A stretch of 61,453 bases of DNA from Coleofasciculus sp. LEGE 07092 (GTDB lineage: Bacteria; Cyanobacteriota; Cyanobacteriia; Cyanobacteriales; Coleofasciculaceae), in NCBI RefSeq assembly GCF_015207375.1, contig NZ_JADEWY010000021.1, forward strand, positions 1-61,453, given 5' to 3'. This document shows positions 3,572 through 20,287 of the stretch, one piece after another; position 1 is the stretch's first letter, and every line of letters starts with the position of its first letter. Made by a program: the position numbers and the translations under genes. Under the pieces are notes generated by a model. The model saw nothing but the letters and a program-made list of their open reading frames with translations. It was not told the origin of the DNA and ran no database searches.

Positions 3572-4843
3572 TTACGAGTTAGACTCCTTAGACACTAAAC
3601 TTGCACTAACACCCTCCAAATCAGCAACCTTACGACTAAAGAGCTTGAAATACAAACCCACAAAAAATTCCTTAATAGGAAGTGTCATAAACGTTAGTGG
3701 ATTAATCGTTACGATAATATTCCGCACATCCCTAACCGCCAAATTCACAATTTGCTTCGCCACCCAATCTGCTGACATCACTCCAATCGGATTCAGATTG
3801 CTTTTAAACGGTCCCAAAATCAATTTTCGCACCACACAAGGGGCATCCAAACGCCGCAACGTCACCAAATCTCCCAATGCCCGTTTTGTTAACTCATACA
3901 ACGGACTAAACGCCGGACTGACTTCCGCCTCTGACGTATTCACCCAAACTTCCTTACGGGCAATATCCTCATTCGTGCGTACTGTCTTAAAAAATAGTTC
4001 CAGCAACCGCCAGCTTGAAAACGTGTTGACTTCATAGGATAAAGTAATGGCATCCGCTGTCCTTTCCCCATGCACGTTAATCCCATGATTGAGAATCAGA
4101 ATATCAACCTTTTCTAACTCGGCTACCAGTTCTGATTCTTTCCCTACCTGCCAGGTGACAGTTTTTAGTGACAGACTTTCACCATTCACAACCAAGTCAA
4201 TCGTCTGCCTCTTCGAAGTCAGAGCAATTACCTTCGCTCCCCGATTGTGGAGGTTTTGCATCAGTGCTTGTCCCAACGTTCCCGATGCACCCGTTACCGC
4301 CACTGTCTTACCTTTGAGGGAAAGTGCCGTACCCATAAGTTTGTCTACCAACGTCAATGTGCTGCAATAGTAAGCCTTTTGATTATCAAAGTGATGCCGC
4401 CAATGGTAGGTGCGATTTACTGTCCAATGAGACGGCGGACTTAAAAACGGACCCGGTAAATGGGTTAAATCTGTGAGTTCATGCGCCCATTTCAACCCAC
4501 TCCCCCGCGCGATCGCACCCAGTAAAAAGCCTATGGTATAAATCGAACCAGCCAATGCTACCCAATGATACTGGGGTATTACCCTGTAGGCAGCAAGCCA
4601 CATCAATACGCTCAACAGCAGCATCACCAAGCATTCCGGCACATCATTGAACCAGTGAGCCTGTCGATAAATGCGATCGCTCGCAGGCGTCAAATCTGGG
4701 CGAAACACCCGATGGTGCCAAACGTGCAACCGATACAGAGGAGCCCAGTAATGGGACAAGGCGTGATAAAAGTCCCGTACCAGCTCTACCCATAACACAG
4801 AACCCAGTCCCCAAACTGCTATTGTTATCCAAGACATTGTCAT
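3572..4843 (-). CDS. Fatty acid hydroxylase/sterol desaturase-like protein fused to a short-chain dehydrogenase
   Basis: 423 residues from the ATG at 4843, chosen because GGAG lies seven bases upstream; a TTG two codons earlier is less likely. The first ~175 residues are a membrane domain with the di-iron histidine boxes of the fatty acid hydroxylase family: HALSH (HX3H), HVWHH and HWRHH (both HX2HH). From about residue 180 a Rossmann domain begins with TGASGTLG and continues with ILNHGINVHG and a YELTKRA active-site segment. Such fusions are annotated in cyanobacteria as sterol desaturase/short-chain dehydrogenase. The two activities plausibly act in sequence, an oxygenation followed by an alcohol or ketone redox step, but the lipid substrate is unknown. 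It ends beside a REP-like palindrome. Confidence 0.88.
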   Translation of the reverse strand: MTMSWITIAVWGLGSVLWVELVRDFYHALSHYWAPLYRLHVWHHRVFRPDLTPASDRIYRQAHWFNDVPECLVMLLLSVLMWLAAYRVIPQYHWVALAGSIYTIGFLLGAIARGSGLKWAHELTDLTHLPGPFLSPPSHWTVNRTYHWRHHFDNQKAYYCSTLTLVDKLMGTALSLKGKTVAVTGASGTLGQALMQNLHNRGAKVIALTSKRQTIDLVVNGESLSLKTVTWQVGKESELVAELEKVDILILNHGINVHGERTADAITLSYEVNTFSSWRLLELFFKTVRTNEDIARKEVWVNTSEAEVSPAFSPLYELTKRALGDLVTLRRLDAPCVVRKLILGPFKSNLNPIGVMSADWVAKQIVNLAVRDVRNIIVTINPLTFMTLPIKEFFVGLYFKLFSRKVADLEGVSASLVSKESNS

Positions 4844-5051
4844 ACACAAACTCCAAACACCCTTTATCGATAATGATTCAAGCAGTACATTTTTCTCCCC
4901 ACTCTCTACCTCTCACCTCAGCCCCTAACAATTGCTCCCCCACCAAAACTCATGAATGCAAACACTTCCCTATCAAAGTATAGAAAAATTAATAATTCAA
5001 GATACAATCAGATACAATTTAATCAGTAAGGGTGGTGAAATCAAGTAACTT

Positions 5052-6467
5052 ATGTCGCAGGATTCCTGGAACGAAAATGACGAACTTGACCCGATTGGCT
5101 CCCTGCTATCTGAATGGTCGAATGATGATTTTGAAAATGACTTCTTCTTCCAAGGACTAGAAGGACGCCGACGCAAGGCGGCTGTAGTGTTAACCATGAT
5201 TTGGGGTGGCACAATTGCATTGCATCTAGTCTCTTGGGGTTCCTGGTTAATTGTGGGATTGACTGCGCTACTAGGGATTCAAGCTGTACGAATCGTCCTA
5301 GCTCGACCGTTAAAGACACCGAAACTGCTTTCGGATACCGATCAAGAGAATTTCCCTTTTGTTTCCCTGCTCGTGGCAGCAAAAAACGAGGAAGCTGTGA
5401 TCAGCCACCTCGTCAAGATGCTGTGTAACTTAGATTACCCCAAAACGCGCTATGAAGTTTGGGTGATTAACGACCACAGTACAGATCAAACACCCATCCT
5501 GTTAGAGCAACTAGCGGCAGAGTACGACCAGTTGAAAGTACTGCACCGAGGCGCTGATGCAGGTGGCGGCAAATCGGGAGCACTCAATCAAGTACTTCCC
5601 CTTACCCAAGGAGAGATTGTGGGGGTATTTGATGCCGATGCTAAAGTCTCCAAAGATTTATTGCGGCGGGTGCTGCCCTTATTCAGACAGCCGAAAATGG
5701 GAGCTGTGCAAATGCGCAAAGCAATAGCTAATGCCTCAGAAAATTTCTGGACACGAGGGCAGATGGCAGAAATGGCATTCGACTCCTACATTCAACAGCA
5801 TCGGATTGCCATCGGCGGCATTGGGGAACTGCGAGGCAACGGACAATTTGTTCGTCGAGTAGCCTTAGAACGGTGCGGCGGTTGGAACGAGCAAACTATT
5901 ACCGACGACTTAGATTTAACCATTCGCTTGCACCTTGATAAATGGGATATCGGCTTTCTCAACTTCCCGCCTGTGGAAGAAGAAGGCGTCACCAGTGCCT
6001 TAGCGTTGTGGCATCAGCGCAACCGCTGGGGAGAAGGCGGATATCAGCGCTATCTGGATTACTGGCGTCTCATTGCCAGCAATCGCATGGGTACGTCGAA
6101 AACGCTGGATTTATTTTCATTCATGATTATCCAGTATCTTTTACCCGCTGCTGCCATACCCGATTGCTTAATGGCAATTGCTCGCAACCGTCCACCAATC
6201 CTCACCCCTCTGACTGGATTGACAGTTACCCTTCCCCTACTGGGAATGTTTATTGGGCTGCGCCGCATCCACAAAGACCAACCATTAACCGCTTCAACCT
6301 TTTTTGTTACCCTTTTGCAGACCCTACGCGGCACCTTTTATATGTTCCACTGGATGCTAGTTATTGCCGGGATGACAGCTCGCATTTCCGTGCGTCCTAA
6401 AAGGCTGAAATGGGTGAAAACCACGCATCAGGGTACTGGGGAAGGGGAAGAAAGTTTTGAGTTTTAA
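5052..6467 (+). CDS. Membrane glycosyltransferase family 2 (processive type)
   Basis: 471 residues. Two hydrophobic segments near residues 45-85 precede the cytosolic GT2 domain (about 98-330). That domain shows the nucleotide-sugar site AAKNEEAVI, the metal-binding FDADA, TDDLDLT in the position of the usual TED acceptor motif, and the HQRNRW (QxxRW) motif of processive synthases. Three to four hydrophobic segments follow (about 355-450). The layout matches cellulose/hyaluronan/N-acetylglucosaminyl synthase-like enzymes that polymerise and export a polysaccharide; the sugar is not predictable here. Start ATG 5052 has no strong ribosome site. It is transcribed alone, divergently from the SDR fusion. 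Confidence 0.9.
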   Translation: MSQDSWNENDELDPIGSLLSEWSNDDFENDFFFQGLEGRRRKAAVVLTMIWGGTIALHLVSWGSWLIVGLTALLGIQAVRIVLARPLKTPKLLSDTDQENFPFVSLLVAAKNEEAVISHLVKMLCNLDYPKTRYEVWVINDHSTDQTPILLEQLAAEYDQLKVLHRGADAGGGKSGALNQVLPLTQGEIVGVFDADAKVSKDLLRRVLPLFRQPKMGAVQMRKAIANASENFWTRGQMAEMAFDSYIQQHRIAIGGIGELRGNGQFVRRVALERCGGWNEQTITDDLDLTIRLHLDKWDIGFLNFPPVEEEGVTSALALWHQRNRWGEGGYQRYLDYWRLIASNRMGTSKTLDLFSFMIIQYLLPAAAIPDCLMAIARNRPPILTPLTGLTVTLPLLGMFIGLRRIHKDQPLTASTFFVTLLQTLRGTFYMFHWMLVIAGMTARISVRPKRLKWVKTTHQGTGEGEESFEF

Positions 6468-6534
6468 CCCAAGCTTCAATATTTACAGTCATTGCGAATG
6501 AAGCAATGACGTTTGTGTAATTAATTTTGCTTAA

Positions 6535-6654
6535 CTACTTAACTTGACTCGTTGCCGGTTCTTCTGAAGGAAAAAGCAAGGGAGCCATCCAACCGAATAG
6601 GATGCCTCCCAGCACTAAAATTTCAGCAATGCGGAGAAGCGTATTTCGTTTCAT
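6535..6654 (-). CDS. Putative 39-residue single-span membrane microprotein
   Basis: The ATG at 6654-6652 overlaps the TGA stop (6653-6651) of the cytochrome b561-like gene in an ATGA arrangement, which favours translational coupling. The frame stays open for 39 codons to TAG at 6535. The product starts MKRNTLLRIAEI, has a hydrophobic core of about 18 residues (ILVLGGILFGWMAPLLF) and ends with a short polar tail. The positive N-terminus suggests an inside-N orientation. I do not recognise a family. It would be the third gene of the operon behind the manganese riboswitch and could be an accessory subunit of the cytochrome; that role is inference. Its size is below usual gene-calling limits. Confidence 0.6.
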   Translation of the reverse strand: MKRNTLLRIAEILVLGGILFGWMAPLLFPSEEPATSQVK

Positions 6655-7256
6655 CGTTGCTTGTGCTGTACTAAAGAACGGATTTGTTTGATCCAACTGG
6701 CTGGCGAATCATTTGAACGGTACTTCAGGCTGAACATAGAAACCATAAACGACCAACCGCCTACCTTCGCACTCATTAACAAGTGAATTGCTAGACAAAA
6801 CACCAGCACCACCCATCCAATCAGGTGGAGAGAGTACCAAGTATGATTCAGCTCTCCCGCAGGTAGCCATTCTTCTTTAACCATACTGCCGGAAACTAAC
6901 GAAAAAGTTATAGCTAATAGCATCACGGTATTGATGATGCGGTGGAGGCTGTACCAGCCGATAGGTTTACCGAGTTGGCTTAGTTTCTGGAAAGAATCGG
7001 GTTGAATTAGGCGTTTTTGACCGATATGGAAACTATAGAGCGCAAAGGCAGGCATTACTGCTAAGAGCAAGGTTTTGCCGAAGGTGCCGTGAATGCCGAT
7101 TATGTCATTAATTTGAGGCAGTGGGAGTTGACCAAACCGTCCGTCATAGGTGTTGTACACCCAAAATGAGGTAATAATTGCTAACAGAGCAATGAAAGCG
7201 TTGATACCGTGCAGGAATCTCAACAGCGAAGGCTGATAAGGTCGGGAGTGGGACAT
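6651..7256 (-). CDS. Cytochrome b/b561-like integral membrane protein
   Basis: 201 residues with four hydrophobic segments (about 15-33, 58-78, 105-124, 142-162). Histidines suited to heme coordination sit at or near the helices: FLHGINAF, GIHGTFG, SFHIGQ, YSLHRI, YSLHLIGW and AIHLLM. The protein resembles the cytochrome b/b6-domain proteins annotated in cyanobacteria and should carry electrons across or within a membrane; donor and acceptor are unknown. The gene begins 29 bases after the manganese exporter stop on the same strand and its stop overlaps the next small gene, so the three form an operon. Start ATG 7256 has a weak GAAAG upstream. Confidence 0.82.
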   Translation of the reverse strand: MSHSRPYQPSLLRFLHGINAFIALLAIITSFWVYNTYDGRFGQLPLPQINDIIGIHGTFGKTLLLAVMPAFALYSFHIGQKRLIQPDSFQKLSQLGKPIGWYSLHRIINTVMLLAITFSLVSGSMVKEEWLPAGELNHTWYSLHLIGWVVLVFCLAIHLLMSAKVGGWSFMVSMFSLKYRSNDSPASWIKQIRSLVQHKQR

Positions 7257-7285
7257 TCTTTCAATAAATGATAAAGGATAAAGGA

Positions 7286-7921
7286 CTATCTAAAAATAGC
7301 AACAGCACCAAAAATCAAAAACAAAACACCACCCAAGGCAGTAATTAAGCGTTCGGAAATTCGACCCGCAATTAAGCGTCCGCCGATAACTGCGATCGCT
7401 GTACAAATGCCATGACCTAAAATCGCGCCTGCTGTAACACCAATAGGTGGATGGGTAGCAGCTAAGGCAATGGTACTGATTTGTGTGCGATCGCCCCACT
7501 CGGCAAGAAAGGTCATGGCAAAAGCTTGCAGTAAAATAGCGAGGTTGGGAGAACACCAGCCCTTTTGCTTGGATAACGTTACAGTTCCATCTCGATCTTG
7601 CTGGGCAACTTCTAGAGCAGCTTCCTTTGCTCCTGTATTTTCAGCTTGGGCAGGCATTTGACTAGCATCGTAAAGCAGCTTAAACCCAAAACCGAGAAAT
7701 AAGGCAATTTCTCCATAATGAATGTAATGTTGGGGTAGCAGCCCAACAACCTGTCCCAACAGCACCGATAATATCGTCATTGCTGCCAGTGCCGCCATGA
7801 CTCCCACGAAGATCAACCGACGCGAGTAGCGCATGGCTAAAATGACGCCGATAAAAAACGTCTTGTCACCTAACTCGGAAATCGTAATCAGCAATAAACC
7901 TGCTGTAAAAGCTGCTAACAT
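7286..7921 (-). CDS. mnx: GDT1/TMEM165 (UPF0016) family manganese exporter
   Basis: 211 residues, six or seven hydrophobic segments. Both halves carry the family signature ExGD(K/R)(T/S): ELGDKT near residue 17 and EWGDRT in the second half. In cyanobacteria and chloroplasts this family (Mnx, PAM71) moves Mn2+ (some members Ca2+) across thylakoid or plasma membranes; Mn supply matters for the water-oxidising cluster and excess is toxic. The start is set at ATG 7921. AAGGAG at 7937-7932 is 10 bases upstream, whereas a TTG at 7930 would leave only one or two bases. It is preceded by a long hairpin and a yybP-ykoY-type aptamer, and followed by a cytochrome gene. Confidence 0.9.
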   Translation of the reverse strand: MLAAFTAGLLLITISELGDKTFFIGVILAMRYSRRLIFVGVMAALAAMTILSVLLGQVVGLLPQHYIHYGEIALFLGFGFKLLYDASQMPAQAENTGAKEAALEVAQQDRDGTVTLSKQKGWCSPNLAILLQAFAMTFLAEWGDRTQISTIALAATHPPIGVTAGAILGHGICTAIAVIGGRLIAGRISERLITALGGVLFLIFGAVAIFR

Positions 7922-7953
7922 TCTTGTCAAGCTCCTTCAAGATTAGCAATTTT

Positions 7954-8003
7954 CTTGATGGAGCTTGGTGGGACTGGCAAGACCTCACCAAGCTCACATC
8001 AAG
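7954..8003 (-). promoter_or_regulatory. Leader hairpin that may control access to the mnx ribosome site
   Basis: On the minus strand, the 5' arm (8003-7986) pairs with the 3' arm (7970-7954) over 17 bp with one bulge and a 15-base loop. The 3' arm contains CAAGCTCC (7967-7960), which is exactly complementary to GGAGCTTG (7935-7928), the Shine-Dalgarno region of mnx. The 3' arm can therefore pair with the 5' arm, leaving the ribosome site free, or capture the ribosome site. Hairpin and complementarity are visible directly; the switching role is inference. Confidence 0.6.
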
Positions 8004-8014
8004 CTGTGAACTCA

Positions 8015-8170
8015 GTGAAAGTCTCGCTACCAAGGTTCTAAAATTTCAGATTCAGAAGTCAGGATTTAACTGAACTGAAACTCGAATACTTGTCACCTGA
8101 ACCAGGCTCATCGCCAGTATGTTGATTCAGATGTTCTGGTTTGTTTATGACCAGGAGCTACTCCCTTTCC
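8015..8170 (-). ncRNA. yybP-ykoY (Mn2+) riboswitch
   Basis: Read on the minus strand, the leader begins GGAAAGGGAGTAGCTCC and ends GTAGCGAGACTTTCAC. These match the two conserved internal-loop strands of the yybP-ykoY aptamer (GGGGAGUAGC and GCRAGACC), and GAAAG pairs with CTTTC as the closing P1 helix. Inside, CTGGT and ACCAG form a P2-like hairpin with an eight-base loop. About 156 nt is longer than the common ~100 nt, but loop lengths vary in this class. Yybp-ykoY aptamers sense Mn2+ and are known to precede UPF0016 genes, which is exactly the gene found here. Regulation is probably at translation through the hairpin at 7954-8003. Confidence 0.82.
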
Positions 8171-9887
<1,717 letters not shown>

Positions 9888-9940
9888 AAGGGGAGTGGGG
9901 AGCAAGGGTGCTGGGGAGCAGAGTAACATCTCGCAAATCT

Positions 9941-9980
9941 CCTTGTCCCCTTGTCCCCTTGTCTCCTTGTCCCCTTGTCC
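9941..9980. repeat. Short tandem repeat CCTTGTCC x5
   Basis: Five units of the octamer CCTTGTCC (one with a single change) lie just before gpmA. A G-rich stretch at 9891-9919 (GGGGAGTGGGGAGCAAGGG and on) is roughly complementary, so the gap1-gpmA spacer can fold in the transcript. There are no spacers, so this is not a CRISPR array. Confidence 0.85.
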
Positions 9981-9997
9981 CTGTCTTCAAATCAACC

Positions 9998-10696
9998 ATG
10001 GCAAAACTAATCCTCGTGCGTCACGGTCAAAGTGTCTGGAATGCCGCCAATCGATTTACTGGCTGGGTTGACGTTCCTCTCAGTCAGCTCGGTCGCCAAG
10101 AAGCAATGTTAGCGGCAAAAAAGATTACTGCCTATCAGATTGATGTTTGCTTTACCAGTCTGCTGGTGCGGGCGATTGAGACAACTGCCATTTGCCTGAC
10201 CGAATGTGAAGAAACCTGTGCAGGCAAAACCCCCGTCTTCAAGCACAAAGAAGACGACCCTGACTGGCACGGTTGGGACAAATATGAAGGCGACAAAAAC
10301 TTAGAAATACCCATCTTCCTGAGTCAGGCGTTGGACGAACGCTATTACGGTGACTTGCAAGGGTACAACAAAGCGCAAATGGCGGAGAAAGTTGGTAAAG
10401 AGCAAGTGCATCTATGGCGGCGGTCATTTTCCGTGCGTCCGCCTGGGGGAGAGAGCCTGGAAGATACTGCCAAACGCACACTTCCCTACTTCAACAGCCG
10501 GATTATGACCCACATAAAACACGGGGATAATGTCCTAGTCTCCGCACATGGTAACTCTCTGCGGTCAATCGTAATGGTTCTTGATGAACTCAGCCAAGAG
10601 GTGGTTCCCAACCTGAATCTGGCTACCGGTATCCCCCTAGTCTACGATATTGACGAGCAAGGTAATGTTGTTGGGAAAGAGACATTAGAGTCATGA
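9998..10696 (+). CDS. gpmA: 2,3-bisphosphoglycerate-dependent phosphoglycerate mutase
   Basis: 232 residues from ATG 9998; longer readings would translate the octamer repeat and are rejected. The N-terminus LVRHGQSVWN carries the histidine that is phosphorylated, ERYYGDLQG follows, and SAHGNSLR supplies the second active-site histidine, all typical of the dPGM branch of histidine phosphatases. It interconverts 3- and 2-phosphoglycerate in the cytosol. The family is usually 230-250 residues. There is no purine-rich ribosome site because the pyrimidine repeat abuts the start; translation may be leaderless-like or depend on folding. It lies 17 bases before pyk. Confidence 0.93.
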   Translation: MAKLILVRHGQSVWNAANRFTGWVDVPLSQLGRQEAMLAAKKITAYQIDVCFTSLLVRAIETTAICLTECEETCAGKTPVFKHKEDDPDWHGWDKYEGDKNLEIPIFLSQALDERYYGDLQGYNKAQMAEKVGKEQVHLWRRSFSVRPPGGESLEDTAKRTLPYFNSRIMTHIKHGDNVLVSAHGNSLRSIVMVLDELSQEVVPNLNLATGIPLVYDIDEQGNVVGKETLES

Positions 10697-10713
10697 ACGA
10701 ACCCTGAACTACC

Positions 10714-12135
10714 ATGCGTAAAACCAAAATTATCTGCACCATCGGTCCAGCTAGTTCTGACTTCGAGACAATGAAAGCAATGGTAGAGGCAGGTATGGAT
10801 GTAGCTCGCCTCAATTTTTCCCATGGAGACCACTCTACCCATCAGCAGTACATTAATACTCTCCGCCAAGTTTCTAAAGAACTCAAACACCCCATCGCCA
10901 TCTTGCAAGATTTACAAGGACCGAAAATTCGTGTGGGGGAGATGCAAGAGGGTGTGGTTTTGACATCGGGTGAAAAGACAATCATTACGATGGAGGATGT
11001 CGTTGGCACAACTACCCGCTTCAGTTCCACCTATAAAGGTTTAGCCCAGGACGTAAAGGTTAATGACCCCATTCTTATCAATGATGGCTTGCTCAAACTG
11101 CGAGTCAATGAGGTAAAGGATCATGAAATTCACTGTACGGTTGTCTATGGTGGTGCTTTAAAAAGCCATAAGGGAATTAACCTCAGCCAGTCCTCTATCT
11201 CTACACCTCCACTTACCGAGAAGGATCTGGAGGACTTGGAATTTGGCTTGAGCCAAGATGTAGACTATATCGCCTTGTCCTTTGTCCGAGAAGCTGCCGA
11301 TTTGGAGAAAGTGAGAGATATCGTGAAGCGTTCTGGTAAGCCAACCCACGTTGTTGCTAAGGTAGAGCGTCACGAAGCAGTCGAGGCAATGGATGACATT
11401 GTCCAAGCTGCCGATGTCATTATGGTGGCGCGGGGTGACTTGGGGGTTGAGATGCTTCTCGAACAAGTGCCTCAGATTCAGAAGTCTCTCATTGATACCT
11501 GCCGCAACCATCTCAAACCCGTCATCACTGCTACCCAAATGCTGGAGTCGATGATCCAAAATCCGCGTCCTACTCGGGCTGAAGTGTCTGATGTGGCGAA
11601 TGCGATTTTGGAAGGAACTGATGCAATTATGCTGTCAGGAGAAACCTCTGTCGGTCGCTATCCGGTGGAGACGGTAAGAACAATGGCTCGTATTGCCGAA
11701 ACTACTGAGGCACGTTTGACCTTCTCCCGCGATTATATTGATGGAACTCAGGAACACACCATTTCAACGGCTGTCGGTTATTCCGCTTGCCAACTGGCGC
11801 AGAACATCAAGGCAAAGGCAATTATCTGTTTTACTGAATACGGCTACTCGACGCGAGTCCTTTCAAAGTATCGCCAGTCTATTCCAGTGATTGCCGTTAC
11901 TCCCACGGAATTGGTGCAACGGCGGTTGGTGCTCTATTGGGGAGTGCAGTCTTTGCGACTAGAGGAAGTCTACAGTACTGACGCGATGATTGTTTTGGCA
12001 GAGCAAGCGGCTGTCGAACACGGTTTTGTGAATAAGGGAGATGTGGTAGTGATGATTGCGGGGTTGCCTCTGGCAATCACTGGCGTCACGAATTTGATCA
12101 AGGCACACCGCATTGGAGAGCAAGTGGCAGTTTAA
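10714..12135 (+). CDS. pyk: Pyruvate kinase (short form)
   Basis: 473 residues. KIICTIGPAS at the N-terminus, the SHG loop, LQDLQGPKIR, the active-site stretch VARGDLGVE and the TQMLESM and SGETSVGRYP motifs are all present. It transfers phosphate from phosphoenolpyruvate to ADP, ending glycolysis. The protein stops after the allosteric C-domain and lacks the extra phosphohistidine domain that makes some cyanobacterial pyruvate kinases near 590 residues, so this is the short isoform. Start ATG 10714 is 17 bases after gpmA with no clear ribosome site, which suggests the same message as gap1-gpmA. Confidence 0.95.
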   Translation: MRKTKIICTIGPASSDFETMKAMVEAGMDVARLNFSHGDHSTHQQYINTLRQVSKELKHPIAILQDLQGPKIRVGEMQEGVVLTSGEKTIITMEDVVGTTTRFSSTYKGLAQDVKVNDPILINDGLLKLRVNEVKDHEIHCTVVYGGALKSHKGINLSQSSISTPPLTEKDLEDLEFGLSQDVDYIALSFVREAADLEKVRDIVKRSGKPTHVVAKVERHEAVEAMDDIVQAADVIMVARGDLGVEMLLEQVPQIQKSLIDTCRNHLKPVITATQMLESMIQNPRPTRAEVSDVANAILEGTDAIMLSGETSVGRYPVETVRTMARIAETTEARLTFSRDYIDGTQEHTISTAVGYSACQLAQNIKAKAIICFTEYGYSTRVLSKYRQSIPVIAVTPTELVQRRLVLYWGVQSLRLEEVYSTDAMIVLAEQAAVEHGFVNKGDVVVMIAGLPLAITGVTNLIKAHRIGEQVAV

Positions 12136-19567: not shown

Positions 19568-19764
19568 TGTCTTACTAAATACCTGTCCTGAAAACGCACC
19601 AGACAGTTATTGTCCCCAATTTTCGGTACTCATCAAATCCATCCTAGGTCTGAATCCCGCTTTGCGCTCCGAGATTGTTTCTCAAGTTAAAGTTACCGGA
19701 ATTTTGTTAGCCATACCCGCCCCCAAGTTTTGTACAGCAAATCAGAAAGCATGATAGAGTAATT

Positions 19765-19895
19765 TGAAGGTTCGGTTCTGATGGGGAACAGCCATCAGAG
19801 GTAACGGGGAAAGTTCGGTGTAAATCCGGCGCTGTCCCGCAACTGTGATGAAACTAGATAGGGTTTCAGAGTCAGGATGCCCGCCGATGTGGAAG
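19765..19895 (+). ncRNA. Cobalamin (B12) riboswitch
   Basis: The conserved core is clear: GGGGAAAGTTCGGTGTAAAT, then CCGGCGCTG, CCCGCAACTGTGA and, 33 bases on, GTCAGGATGCCCGCC. These match the consensus cobalamin aptamer including the B12-box region. It is oriented toward the DUF1636-cobW pair, about 390 bases before the first ATG. Adenosyl- or related cobalamins normally repress the downstream genes. The long stretch 19896-20287 presumably holds the expression platform; I did not find a clear terminator with a T-run there. Confidence 0.93.
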
Positions 19896-20287
19896 AAGAG
19901 TTAACATTCATCTGCGAGGTACGGATGGTCTATAGTCTAGGATTGCAACCATTGATACGTCTGAGGCGATCGCTACAGAAGGTTATGATGCCTGATCAAG
20001 GGTCGGGCTAATTGGTATTTCTCAAATTAGACTAGATTAGCGCGTCAGCCTAAGGTTGATTCCAGGGCTAGAGCGTTATTTGAGCGAAAACGGAACTATT
20101 GGTTAACAATACGTCGCTTGCCCTTCTACCATCCCAGTTCCGGGTTCTAGTGGTTTTGATTTGTTTAGACATGAAATAGCTTAGAGGAATTAAAACTTGG
20201 TGTACCCATTGTATGGGAGGTTTTGGAGACACTAATTCCAGGTCTATCGTTTCAACGAGATATGCTATTTCACAAAACTATTCGTGA

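What the first reader, a model, noticed from the sequence alone, without database searches (positions are those of the whole stretch)
6535..8170. Manganese-riboswitch operon with a cytochrome and a hidden microprotein
On the minus strand, a yybP-ykoY-type aptamer precedes mnx (GDT1 family), then a cytochrome b561-like gene 29 bases on, then a 39-codon gene overlapping the cytochrome stop as ATGA. Manganese export and a membrane electron carrier plus microprotein under one Mn2+ signal is an unusual grouping. It suggests a link between Mn level and membrane redox. Seen directly: order, spacing, overlap and aptamer motifs. Inference: a shared transcript and the function.
Basis: partly seen in the sequence, partly recalled or inferred. 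Interest (0 to 1): 0.8.

Follow-up and report, generated by a model that had tools for sequence, protein, structure and literature searches.

The report
Manganese switch with split cytochrome
In this cyanobacterium an RNA switch of the manganese-sensing kind appears to control a manganese exporter gene that shares an operon with a membrane cytochrome, and the "hidden microprotein" looks like the cytochrome's own fifth membrane helix, cut off into a separate tiny gene.

Summary
The anatomy is as described: aptamer, mnx (GDT1), 29-nt gap, b561-type cytochrome, 39-codon ORF overlapping as ATGA. Rfam's Mn-riboswitch model scores only 20.1 bits (cut-off 45). A model built here, with P1-P4 supported by covariation, hits 54 class-level genomes of a 339-genome phylum sample; all 55 hits lie 83-150 nt upstream of mnx, and 0 of 39 such loci scanned pass Rfam's cut-off. 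Between aptamer and start codon four segments form three mutually exclusive helices, the last masking the mnx ribosome-binding site: a translational ON switch is inferred. The microprotein is homologous to the C-terminal membrane helix of longer, fused cytochromes in other cyanobacteria, so the cytochrome gene here is split. The cytochrome lies within 1 kb of a Mn exporter gene in 13 of 94 genomes that have it, with two unrelated exporter families (mnx 6, mntP 7) and in several arrangements, so the Mn-redox link looks real, though most genomes lack the adjacency. Control of the cytochrome by the riboswitch is plausible but indirect, since the switch appears to act at the mnx start, and a chance-level terminator-like site lies at the end of mnx. 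Superoxide-oxidase-like catalysis is inferred only. New variant of known kinds.

The parts
8175..8190 (-). putative extended -10 promoter element (TATGCTATATATAAAG), just upstream of the aptamer
   Evidence: Read by eye; similar TATGNTATAA-type stretches stand before the aptamer in close relatives L002-L004. The consensus scan did not list it. Inference.
8016..8170 (-). yybP-ykoY-type Mn2+ riboswitch aptamer, cyanobacterial branch (P1.1, L1, P1.2, P2, P3 with L3, P4)
   Evidence: RF00080 20.1 bits; own model R1; 98.5% of 461 pair cells standard, 18 of 31 pairs with changes on both sides, 15 sequences
8000..8025 (-). segment A: holds the 3' strand of aptamer P1 and the 5' arm of hairpin A:B
   Evidence: A:B 90.4% paired, 8 of 19 pairs with changes on both sides, 46 sequences; coordinates
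7978..7999 (-). segment B: pairs with A or with C
   Evidence: B:C 86.6% paired, 6 of 13 pairs with changes on both sides; coordinates
7953..7972 (-). segment C: pairs with B or with D (anti-ribosome-binding-site)
7922..7942 (-). segment D with ribosome-binding site AAGGAG of mnx
   Evidence: C:D 76.3% paired, 10 of 12 pairs with changes on both sides; coordinates
7286..7921 (-). mnx, GDT1/UPF0016-family Mn exporter, 211 aa, start ATG at 7921
   Evidence: Pfam GDT1 160.5 bits; ELGDKT and EWGDRT motifs read in the sequence
6651..7256 (-). split b561-type cytochrome, large part, four long helices, 201 aa
   Evidence: Pfam Ni_hydr_CYTB; invariant H16, H56, H144, H158 in 23 aligned sequences; model of pLDDT 67.8
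6535..6654 (-). detached fifth transmembrane helix of the cytochrome, 39 aa, ATGA overlap
   Evidence: Profile of split microproteins matches C-termini of fused cytochromes; 12 of 12 matches among 57 relatives lie beside or inside the cytochrome

Best explanation
A cyanobacterial branch of the yybP-ykoY Mn2+ riboswitch controls translation of the Mn exporter Mnx. At low Mn, segment A is free, pairs with B, and C is left to pair with D and hide the mnx ribosome-binding site. At high Mn, the ion locks the aptamer, P1 takes the start of A, B pairs with C, D is freed and mnx is translated. The same transcript carries a b-type membrane cytochrome (four helices, four invariant histidines, probably two hemes) whose fifth helix is encoded as a separate 39-aa ORF coupled by an ATGA overlap; the two chains together make the five-helix cytochrome that other cyanobacteria encode as one protein. 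The cytochrome is most likely a quinone-linked redox companion of Mn export, for example a superoxide-oxidase-like enzyme that relieves the oxidative stress of Mn excess. Shown computationally: aptamer structure, mutually exclusive conserved helices, homology of microprotein and C-terminal helix, recurrent linkage to Mn exporters. Inferred: Mn binding, direction of the switch, one transcript, complex formation, heme content, enzyme activity.
For: Aptamer: covariation; R1 hits 57 of 339 phylum genomes, 54 of them in the class, and 55 of 55 hits in those 54 genomes have mnx 83-150 nt downstream on the same strand. The window genome has one hit, here. Two of the four weak hits outside the class precede a TerC and a Na/Ca-exchanger gene. 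Platform: three helices that exclude each other, each kept in 46 sequences; barring the first 10 nt of A from pairing raised ribosome-binding-site accessibility by more than 0.05 in 26 of 59 leaders, lowered it by more than 0.05 in 0 and left 33 flat. Split cytochrome: a profile from 25 split rows (24 places, the window's twice) matches the C-terminus of 11 of 33 fused rows (31 distinct) at domain E <= 1e-3, best 1.9e-9; the genome search finds the helix in 33 of 339 genomes, 32 beside or inside the cytochrome and one beside a cytochrome remnant. Linkage: of 60 genomes with mnx and cytochrome, 6 have them within 1 kb; of 33 with mntP and cytochrome (31 with listed positions), 7 do. The same-strand mnx-cytochrome pair lies in two separate parts of both trees. 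Fold of the window model: superoxide oxidase 5oc0 and formate dehydrogenase-N gamma both Z 8.3.
Against: Rfam gathering score not reached. In silico, blocking A changed little in 33 of 59 leaders, L129, L130 and L143 among them (in seven leaders, including these three, the end was not at a start codon). For B:C two of five measures were no better than shuffles. The weaker fused group (L058-L064, L112, L122, L129 and others) matches the microprotein profile only at E 0.012-3.3, though at the same place. 54 of 60 genomes with mnx and cytochrome, and at least 24 of 33 with mntP and cytochrome, do not have them adjacent. A chance-level terminator-like site stands at 7343-7327 in the end of mnx. 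In relative L002 the mnx-cytochrome gap is 166 nt and holds a hairpin, and no microprotein was found; 11 of 84 cytochromes are short without a helix gene found. Synechocystis mnx transcript did not change in Mn excess (PMC11649195, passages), which a translational switch or the lack of the aptamer there could both explain; PMC7380456 (passages) says an Anabaena UPF0016 gene is under ManSR. hhalign did not connect the cytochrome with CybB; unrelated helical bundles (a serotonin receptor, TRPA1) score as high, 8.3 and 8.2. Models have pLDDT 68.6 and 67.8.
Confidence: 0.65

Rival explanations
1. The cytochrome works on manganese itself: it passes electrons across the membrane to keep exported Mn as Mn(II), or takes part in Mn(III)/Mn(II) cycling in the lumen or periplasm.
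For: Linkage to exporters of two unrelated families; b561-type family with four invariant histidines.
Against: No Mn-binding feature was identified or looked for systematically; nothing tested distinguishes it from a superoxide or quinone role.
Confidence: 0.2
2. The microprotein is an independent regulator of Mnx (an MntS-like small protein, name recalled) that happens to follow the cytochrome gene.
For: Small single-helix ORF in the same gene run as an exporter.
Against: It follows the cytochrome, not the exporter, and its relative is fused to the cytochrome in other lineages; in Microcoleus loci it occurs without mnx in the stretch held.
Confidence: 0.05
3. The riboswitch controls only mnx; cytochrome and helix are made from their own signals and share the gene run through history or horizontal transfer.
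For: Platform acts at the mnx start; terminator-like site in the end of mnx (chance level); good own ribosome-binding site before the cytochrome in L003 and L004 (by eye); pair adjacent in only 6 of 60 genomes with both; one clade with the pair mixes families f8, f29 and f42.
Against: 29-nt gap without promoter- or terminator-like site in the window; cytochrome also recurs beside mntP.
Confidence: 0.35
4. A:B acts as a transcription terminator in some lineages, so the switch is transcriptional there.
For: A:B is a long stable hairpin followed by short T runs in some leaders, such as L013 and L070.
Against: Hardly any T run after A:B in the window (GGTCTTGCC); C:D hides the ribosome-binding site and is conserved.
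Confidence: 0.2

Closest known systems
yybP-ykoY Mn2+ riboswitch (Rfam RF00080; E. coli mntP/alx and Xanthomonas types recalled)
   Same: L1 GGGAGUAG and L3 UCAACAUACU loops, P1-P4 layout, upstream of a Mn exporter
   Different: 20.1 bits in the window and 23.1-32.5 bits in the 10 loci listed by the permissive scan, under Rfam's 45; long variable P4; conserved four-segment platform over the ribosome-binding site
Mnx / SynPAM71 (GDT1, UPF0016) of Synechocystis
   Same: Same Pfam family, two ExGD motifs
   Different: The cyanobacterial paper seen names only ManSR as known Mn regulator (PMC11649195, passages); here a riboswitch leader is present
Superoxide oxidase CybB (E. coli b561)
   Same: Pfam Ni_hydr_CYTB for both; invariant histidines 16/56/144/158 here, 13/45/137/151 among the eight of CybB; Z 8.3
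   Different: hhalign finds no link; extra fifth helix, fused or split, outside the Pfam domain
MntP (PF02659) Mn efflux pump
   Same: Exporter of another family that stands beside the same cytochrome in other cyanobacteria, divergent
   Different: No match in the window genome at E 1e-10
LcoA-BcnA cytochrome b561/lipocalin pair (PMC9113575; only the start of the abstract in the listing was seen)
   Same: A b561 cytochrome gene linked to a partner gene in stress defence
   Different: Partner is a secreted lipocalin, not a metal exporter

Membership tests
yybP-ykoY Mn2+ riboswitch (RF00080) | conserved L1 GGGAGUAG and L3 CAACAUAC loops | tested here: met
yybP-ykoY Mn2+ riboswitch (RF00080) | P1-P4 secondary structure kept by compensatory change | tested here: met
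   18 of 31 pairs with changes on both sides, 0 of 500 shuffles as high; slid versions pair in 19.5-50% of cells against 98.5%
yybP-ykoY Mn2+ riboswitch (RF00080) | upstream of Mn or cation exporter genes | tested here: met
   55 of 55 hits in the class upstream of mnx; TerC and Na/Ca exchanger for two of four hits outside it
yybP-ykoY Mn2+ riboswitch (RF00080) | Rfam gathering score (a library threshold, not a definition of the class) | tested here: not met
   20.1 of 45 bits in the window; 0 of 40 further loci pass with Rfam's fast filters, 39 with mnx and one with TerC
yybP-ykoY Mn2+ riboswitch (RF00080) | binds Mn2+ and changes expression | not testable with these tools
   needs in-line probing and reporters
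GDT1/Mnx | GDT1 domain with two ExGD[KR][TS] motifs | tested here: met
GDT1/Mnx | exports Mn2+ | not testable with these tools
   needs transport assay
prokaryotic cytochrome b561 (PF01292) | profile score over the curated cut-off | tested here: met
   50.5 vs 30.1 bits
prokaryotic cytochrome b561 (PF01292) | four helix histidines for two hemes | tested here: met
   H16, H56, H144, H158 invariant in 23 sequences; their ligand role is recalled, heme itself not testable
superoxide oxidase CybB | sequence or fold relation closer than to other b-type cytochromes | tested here: inconclusive
   hhalign no link; Z 8.3 tied with formate dehydrogenase-N gamma and with unrelated bundles
superoxide oxidase CybB | superoxide:quinone activity | not testable with these tools
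   needs enzyme assay

The most novel reading that the evidence does not exclude
The five-helix cytochrome, fused or split, is a dedicated redox partner of Mn export in cyanobacteria: two unrelated exporters (Mnx and MntP) have each been paired with it more than once, and in the window lineage an Mn2+ riboswitch drives exporter and cytochrome together, so that electron flow across the membrane is tied to the Mn load.
Probability: 0.3. Interest if true: 0.85.

Novelty: new variant of a known kind. Interest (0 to 1): 0.62.

Why it matters
[quoted passage not shown] A Mn-type riboswitch before mnx in 54 of the 78 mnx-bearing genomes of a 339-genome phylum sample, under Rfam's cut-off wherever scanned, gives a directly testable regulator. 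The recurrent pairing of one cytochrome with two unrelated Mn exporters points to a redox side of Mn export for which my searches found no report, and the detached helix is a clear case of a conserved microprotein that is a piece of its neighbour.

Tried and rejected
Free microprotein family: rejected, because the genome search finds the helix beside or inside the cytochrome in 32 of 33 phylum genomes and 12 of 12 relatives, and beside a cytochrome remnant in the last (in one search at most 17 candidates per genome were scored). MIR3444 and other miRNA or snoRNA hits of the permissive Rfam scan: under their cut-offs, hairpin look-alikes, one of them on the platform. PDB sequence search with the cytochrome profile: no hit. 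hhalign to CybB: no link. Aptamer in the mntP-cytochrome gap of L035: not seen by eye; no model was run there. Paper search for FdnI histidines: nothing useful. Direction of the split (fission or fusion) is not settled: the tree has no sure root, is a quick one with long branches; fused needs 3 changes, split 8.

Rows dropped before counts: 14 of 84 cytochromes left out of the tree as near-copies or truncated; 13 of 59 leaders left out of the platform alignment, 10 near-copies and 3 with an unsure start (L137, L145, L147), while 5 whose end is not at a start codon were kept (L129, L130, L132, L143, L144); 1 of 16 leaders (L006) not matched by the pattern used for the aptamer alignment. Two of 33 genomes with mntP and cytochrome (G047, G126) had no listed mntP position.
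Full report
Observation. The neighbours are a glyceraldehyde-3-phosphate dehydrogenase gene (divergent, 8865-9887) and a family-2 glycosyltransferase gene (convergent, 5052-6467).

Aptamer. At Rfam's gathering score the window shows no Mn riboswitch, and the whole-genome search with RF00080 gives no match at E 0.001. A permissive scan gives RF00080 at 7998-8165 with 20.1 bits against a cut-off of 45. Of 16 loci scanned permissively, 10 were listed with RF00080 at 23.1-32.5 bits, one of them (L020) over the L3 part only; 0 of 40 further loci passed the cut-off (39 with mnx, one with TerC). I therefore aligned 15 leaders and tested a named structure: P1.1, P1.2, P2, P3 and P4 together form standard pairs in 98.5% of 461 cells, with changes on both sides at 18 of 31 pairs; no shuffle of 500 was as high on four of five measures (10 of 500 on pair types), and slid versions fell to 19.5-50%. 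P1 itself covaries at one pair: G-C in 10 and A-U in 5 of 15 sequences. The shuffles do not correct for relatedness.

Distribution. A covariance model of that alignment hits 57 of 339 genomes of the phylum; 54 of these are in the class. The 55 hits in those 54 genomes all have mnx 83-150 nt downstream on the same strand (recount from listed coordinates). 6 of the 54 genomes were in the training set. 78 of the 339 genomes have mnx at E 1e-20, and the 54 are among them. The four weak hits (36.9-45.2 bits) in three genomes outside the class precede a TerC gene (L150), a Na/Ca exchanger gene (L152) and two places not assigned (L151, L153); TerC and such exchangers are usual company of yybP-ykoY (recalled).

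Expression platform. Between P1 and the mnx start, 95-117 nt in 58 of 59 leaders, lie four segments A-D. In 46 aligned leaders A:B is paired in 90.4% of cells (8 of 19 pairs changed on both sides), B:C in 86.6% (6 of 13) and C:D in 76.3% (10 of 12); slid versions reach at most 44%, 54% and 50%. Against shuffles, A:B exceeds them on all measures but pair types (11 of 500). For B:C, pairs with double change and pair types were no better than shuffles (261 and 231 of 500), while paired cells, cells with double change and the covariation score were (0 of 500). For C:D the numbers were 0 to 17 of 500. The three helices exclude one another in a chain. D holds the ribosome-binding site. Since A begins inside P1, a locked aptamer should favour B:C and free D: an ON switch, fitting an exporter. 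A folding test with the first 10 nt of A barred from pairing raised accessibility of the site by more than 0.05 in 26 of 59 leaders, lowered it by that much in none and left 33 flat, so the energetic support is partial; in the window the rise was from 0.26 to 0.39.

Cytochrome and microprotein. The 201-aa protein is a PF01292 b561-type cytochrome with invariant H16, H56, H144 and H158. Microproteins follow such cytochromes in many Coleofasciculus, Microcoleus and Tychonema records, mostly with no mnx in the stretch held. Cytochromes of other cyanobacteria are 221-242 aa and end in an extra hydrophobic helix. A profile from 25 split rows (24 places; the window's is in twice) matches that C-terminal helix in 11 of 33 fused rows (31 distinct proteins) at domain E <= 1e-3, best 1.9e-9. 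For five others only a first, different stretch was printed, but the genome search recovered them. The remaining 17 rows, mainly the group that ends in AWIIPLFK-like letters, match at the same place only at E 0.002-3.3. The genome search finds the helix in 33 of 339 genomes: 32 lie beside or inside the cytochrome, and the last (G244) beside a degraded cytochrome stretch. Among 57 relatives 12 have it, all 12 beside or inside the cytochrome. A glutamate and a proline of the helix are invariant in 20 split forms, and the glutamate is seen by eye in the fused ones. The split occurs in families f1, f2, f6 and f22 of the sample. Pooled pN/pS is 0.35 over 171 pairs of 19 sequences, none at or above 1. 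In one relative (L039) the helix gene lies about 2 kb from the cytochrome, and 11 of 84 cytochromes are short with no helix gene found. So the gene here is a split cytochrome gene; whether fission or fusion came first is open.

Link to manganese export. 60 of 339 genomes have both mnx and cytochrome and 6 have them within 1 kb: G000, G136, G209, G248 and G251 on one strand, G027 divergent. In family f1 of the relatives' sample, 7 genomes have a close mnx (G000, G004, G006, G008, G009, G010, G014) and 5 of them the same-strand order (not G008 and G009); G024 (f6) has the divergent order. Unexpectedly, in Microcoleus the cytochrome is the divergent neighbour of mntP, a Mn efflux pump of another Pfam family. 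Of 33 genomes with mntP and cytochrome, 31 have listed positions and 7 have the two within 1 kb, all on opposite strands: G023, G051, G084, G095, G233, G240, G371 (L202-L204). Thus 13 of 94 cytochrome-bearing genomes have it within 1 kb of a Mn exporter gene, in families f1, f2, f5, f8, f9, f29, f36 and f42. The same-strand mnx-cytochrome pair falls in two separate parts of the mnx tree and of the cytochrome tree (quick trees with long-branch warnings), so it arose or moved more than once; the group with f8, f29 and f42 suggests transfer of the whole module (inference). Most genomes with both genes do not have them adjacent, which is the main evidence against an obligatory link.

One transcript? 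No promoter- or terminator-like site lies in the 29-nt gap, but a terminator-like site (7343-7327) lies in the last codons of mnx; the count of such sites is near chance. In L002 the gap is 166 nt with a hairpin. Transcript data would decide.

Function. AlphaFold models are of modest confidence: fused L060 68.6 and window cytochrome 67.8 mean pLDDT. The window model matches E. coli formate dehydrogenase-N gamma and superoxide oxidase (5oc0) with Z 8.3 each and hydrogenase-1 cytochrome b with 8.0, but a serotonin receptor and TRPA1 score the same, so this is not decisive. For the L060 model Foldseek's first two were formate dehydrogenase-N and hydrogenase-1 cytochrome b, at E 0.1 and 0.32. Sequence profiles did not connect it to CybB. 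CybB is a four-helix, two-heme enzyme that passes electrons from superoxide to quinone (PMC11869295, passages), and Mn excess brings oxidative stress in a Synechocystis mnx mutant (PMC11649195, passages). A superoxide-oxidase-like role is therefore the most likely single guess, but it is an inference; Mn redox chemistry is the main rival.

What is in print. PMC7380456 (passages) states that 328 of 333 screened bacterial UPF0016 genes stand under yybP-ykoY and that an Anabaena member is under ManSR; the paper it cites for the first (PMC4376352) is not held, so cyanobacteria may be among the 328. PMC11649195 (passages) says that in cyanobacteria only ManSR is known. Searches for a cyanobacterial Mn riboswitch, a split b561 gene, or a b561-mntP pair listed no such report (titles, counts and abstract starts seen; open-licence papers only).

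Noticed in passing
window 19756-19902 (+): Cobalamin riboswitch, 54.1 bits, over Rfam's cut-off; downstream gene not examined.
   Followed up: no
window 8865-12135 (+): GAPDH gene, then frames that look like phosphoglycerate mutase and pyruvate kinase (the two names are recalled from the sequence): a glycolysis gene run divergent from the mnx operon.
   Followed up: no
window 3572-4849 (-): One ORF joins a fatty-acid-hydroxylase-like part (residues 19-174, under the curated cut-off) and a short-chain dehydrogenase part.
   Followed up: no
window 6488-6510: Hairpin between the convergent operon and glycosyltransferase gene, terminator-like on the + strand.
   Followed up: no
L035 3804-4000: mntP-cytochrome gap in Microcoleus vaginatus holds an inverted repeat GTGTAAACT ... 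AGTTTACAC, a possible regulator site for both genes.
   Followed up: no
L026 1847-2002 (-): The same Mn aptamer precedes another, distant GDT1-type gene in another family of the order.
   Followed up: partly
L137 and L144 (G209): One genome has two mnx genes, each with its own aptamer; only one is followed by the cytochrome.
   Followed up: partly
L205 (G244 C35): Helix sequence beside the remnant of a degraded cytochrome gene.
   Followed up: partly
L137 1459-1600 (+): Cobalamin riboswitch just downstream of a Mn-aptamer mnx gene.
   Followed up: no
G136 (L129): This genome has two cytochrome genes, one behind mnx and one elsewhere; the search row for the former notes one TAG inside, while the frame read from L129 was open.
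   Followed up: no
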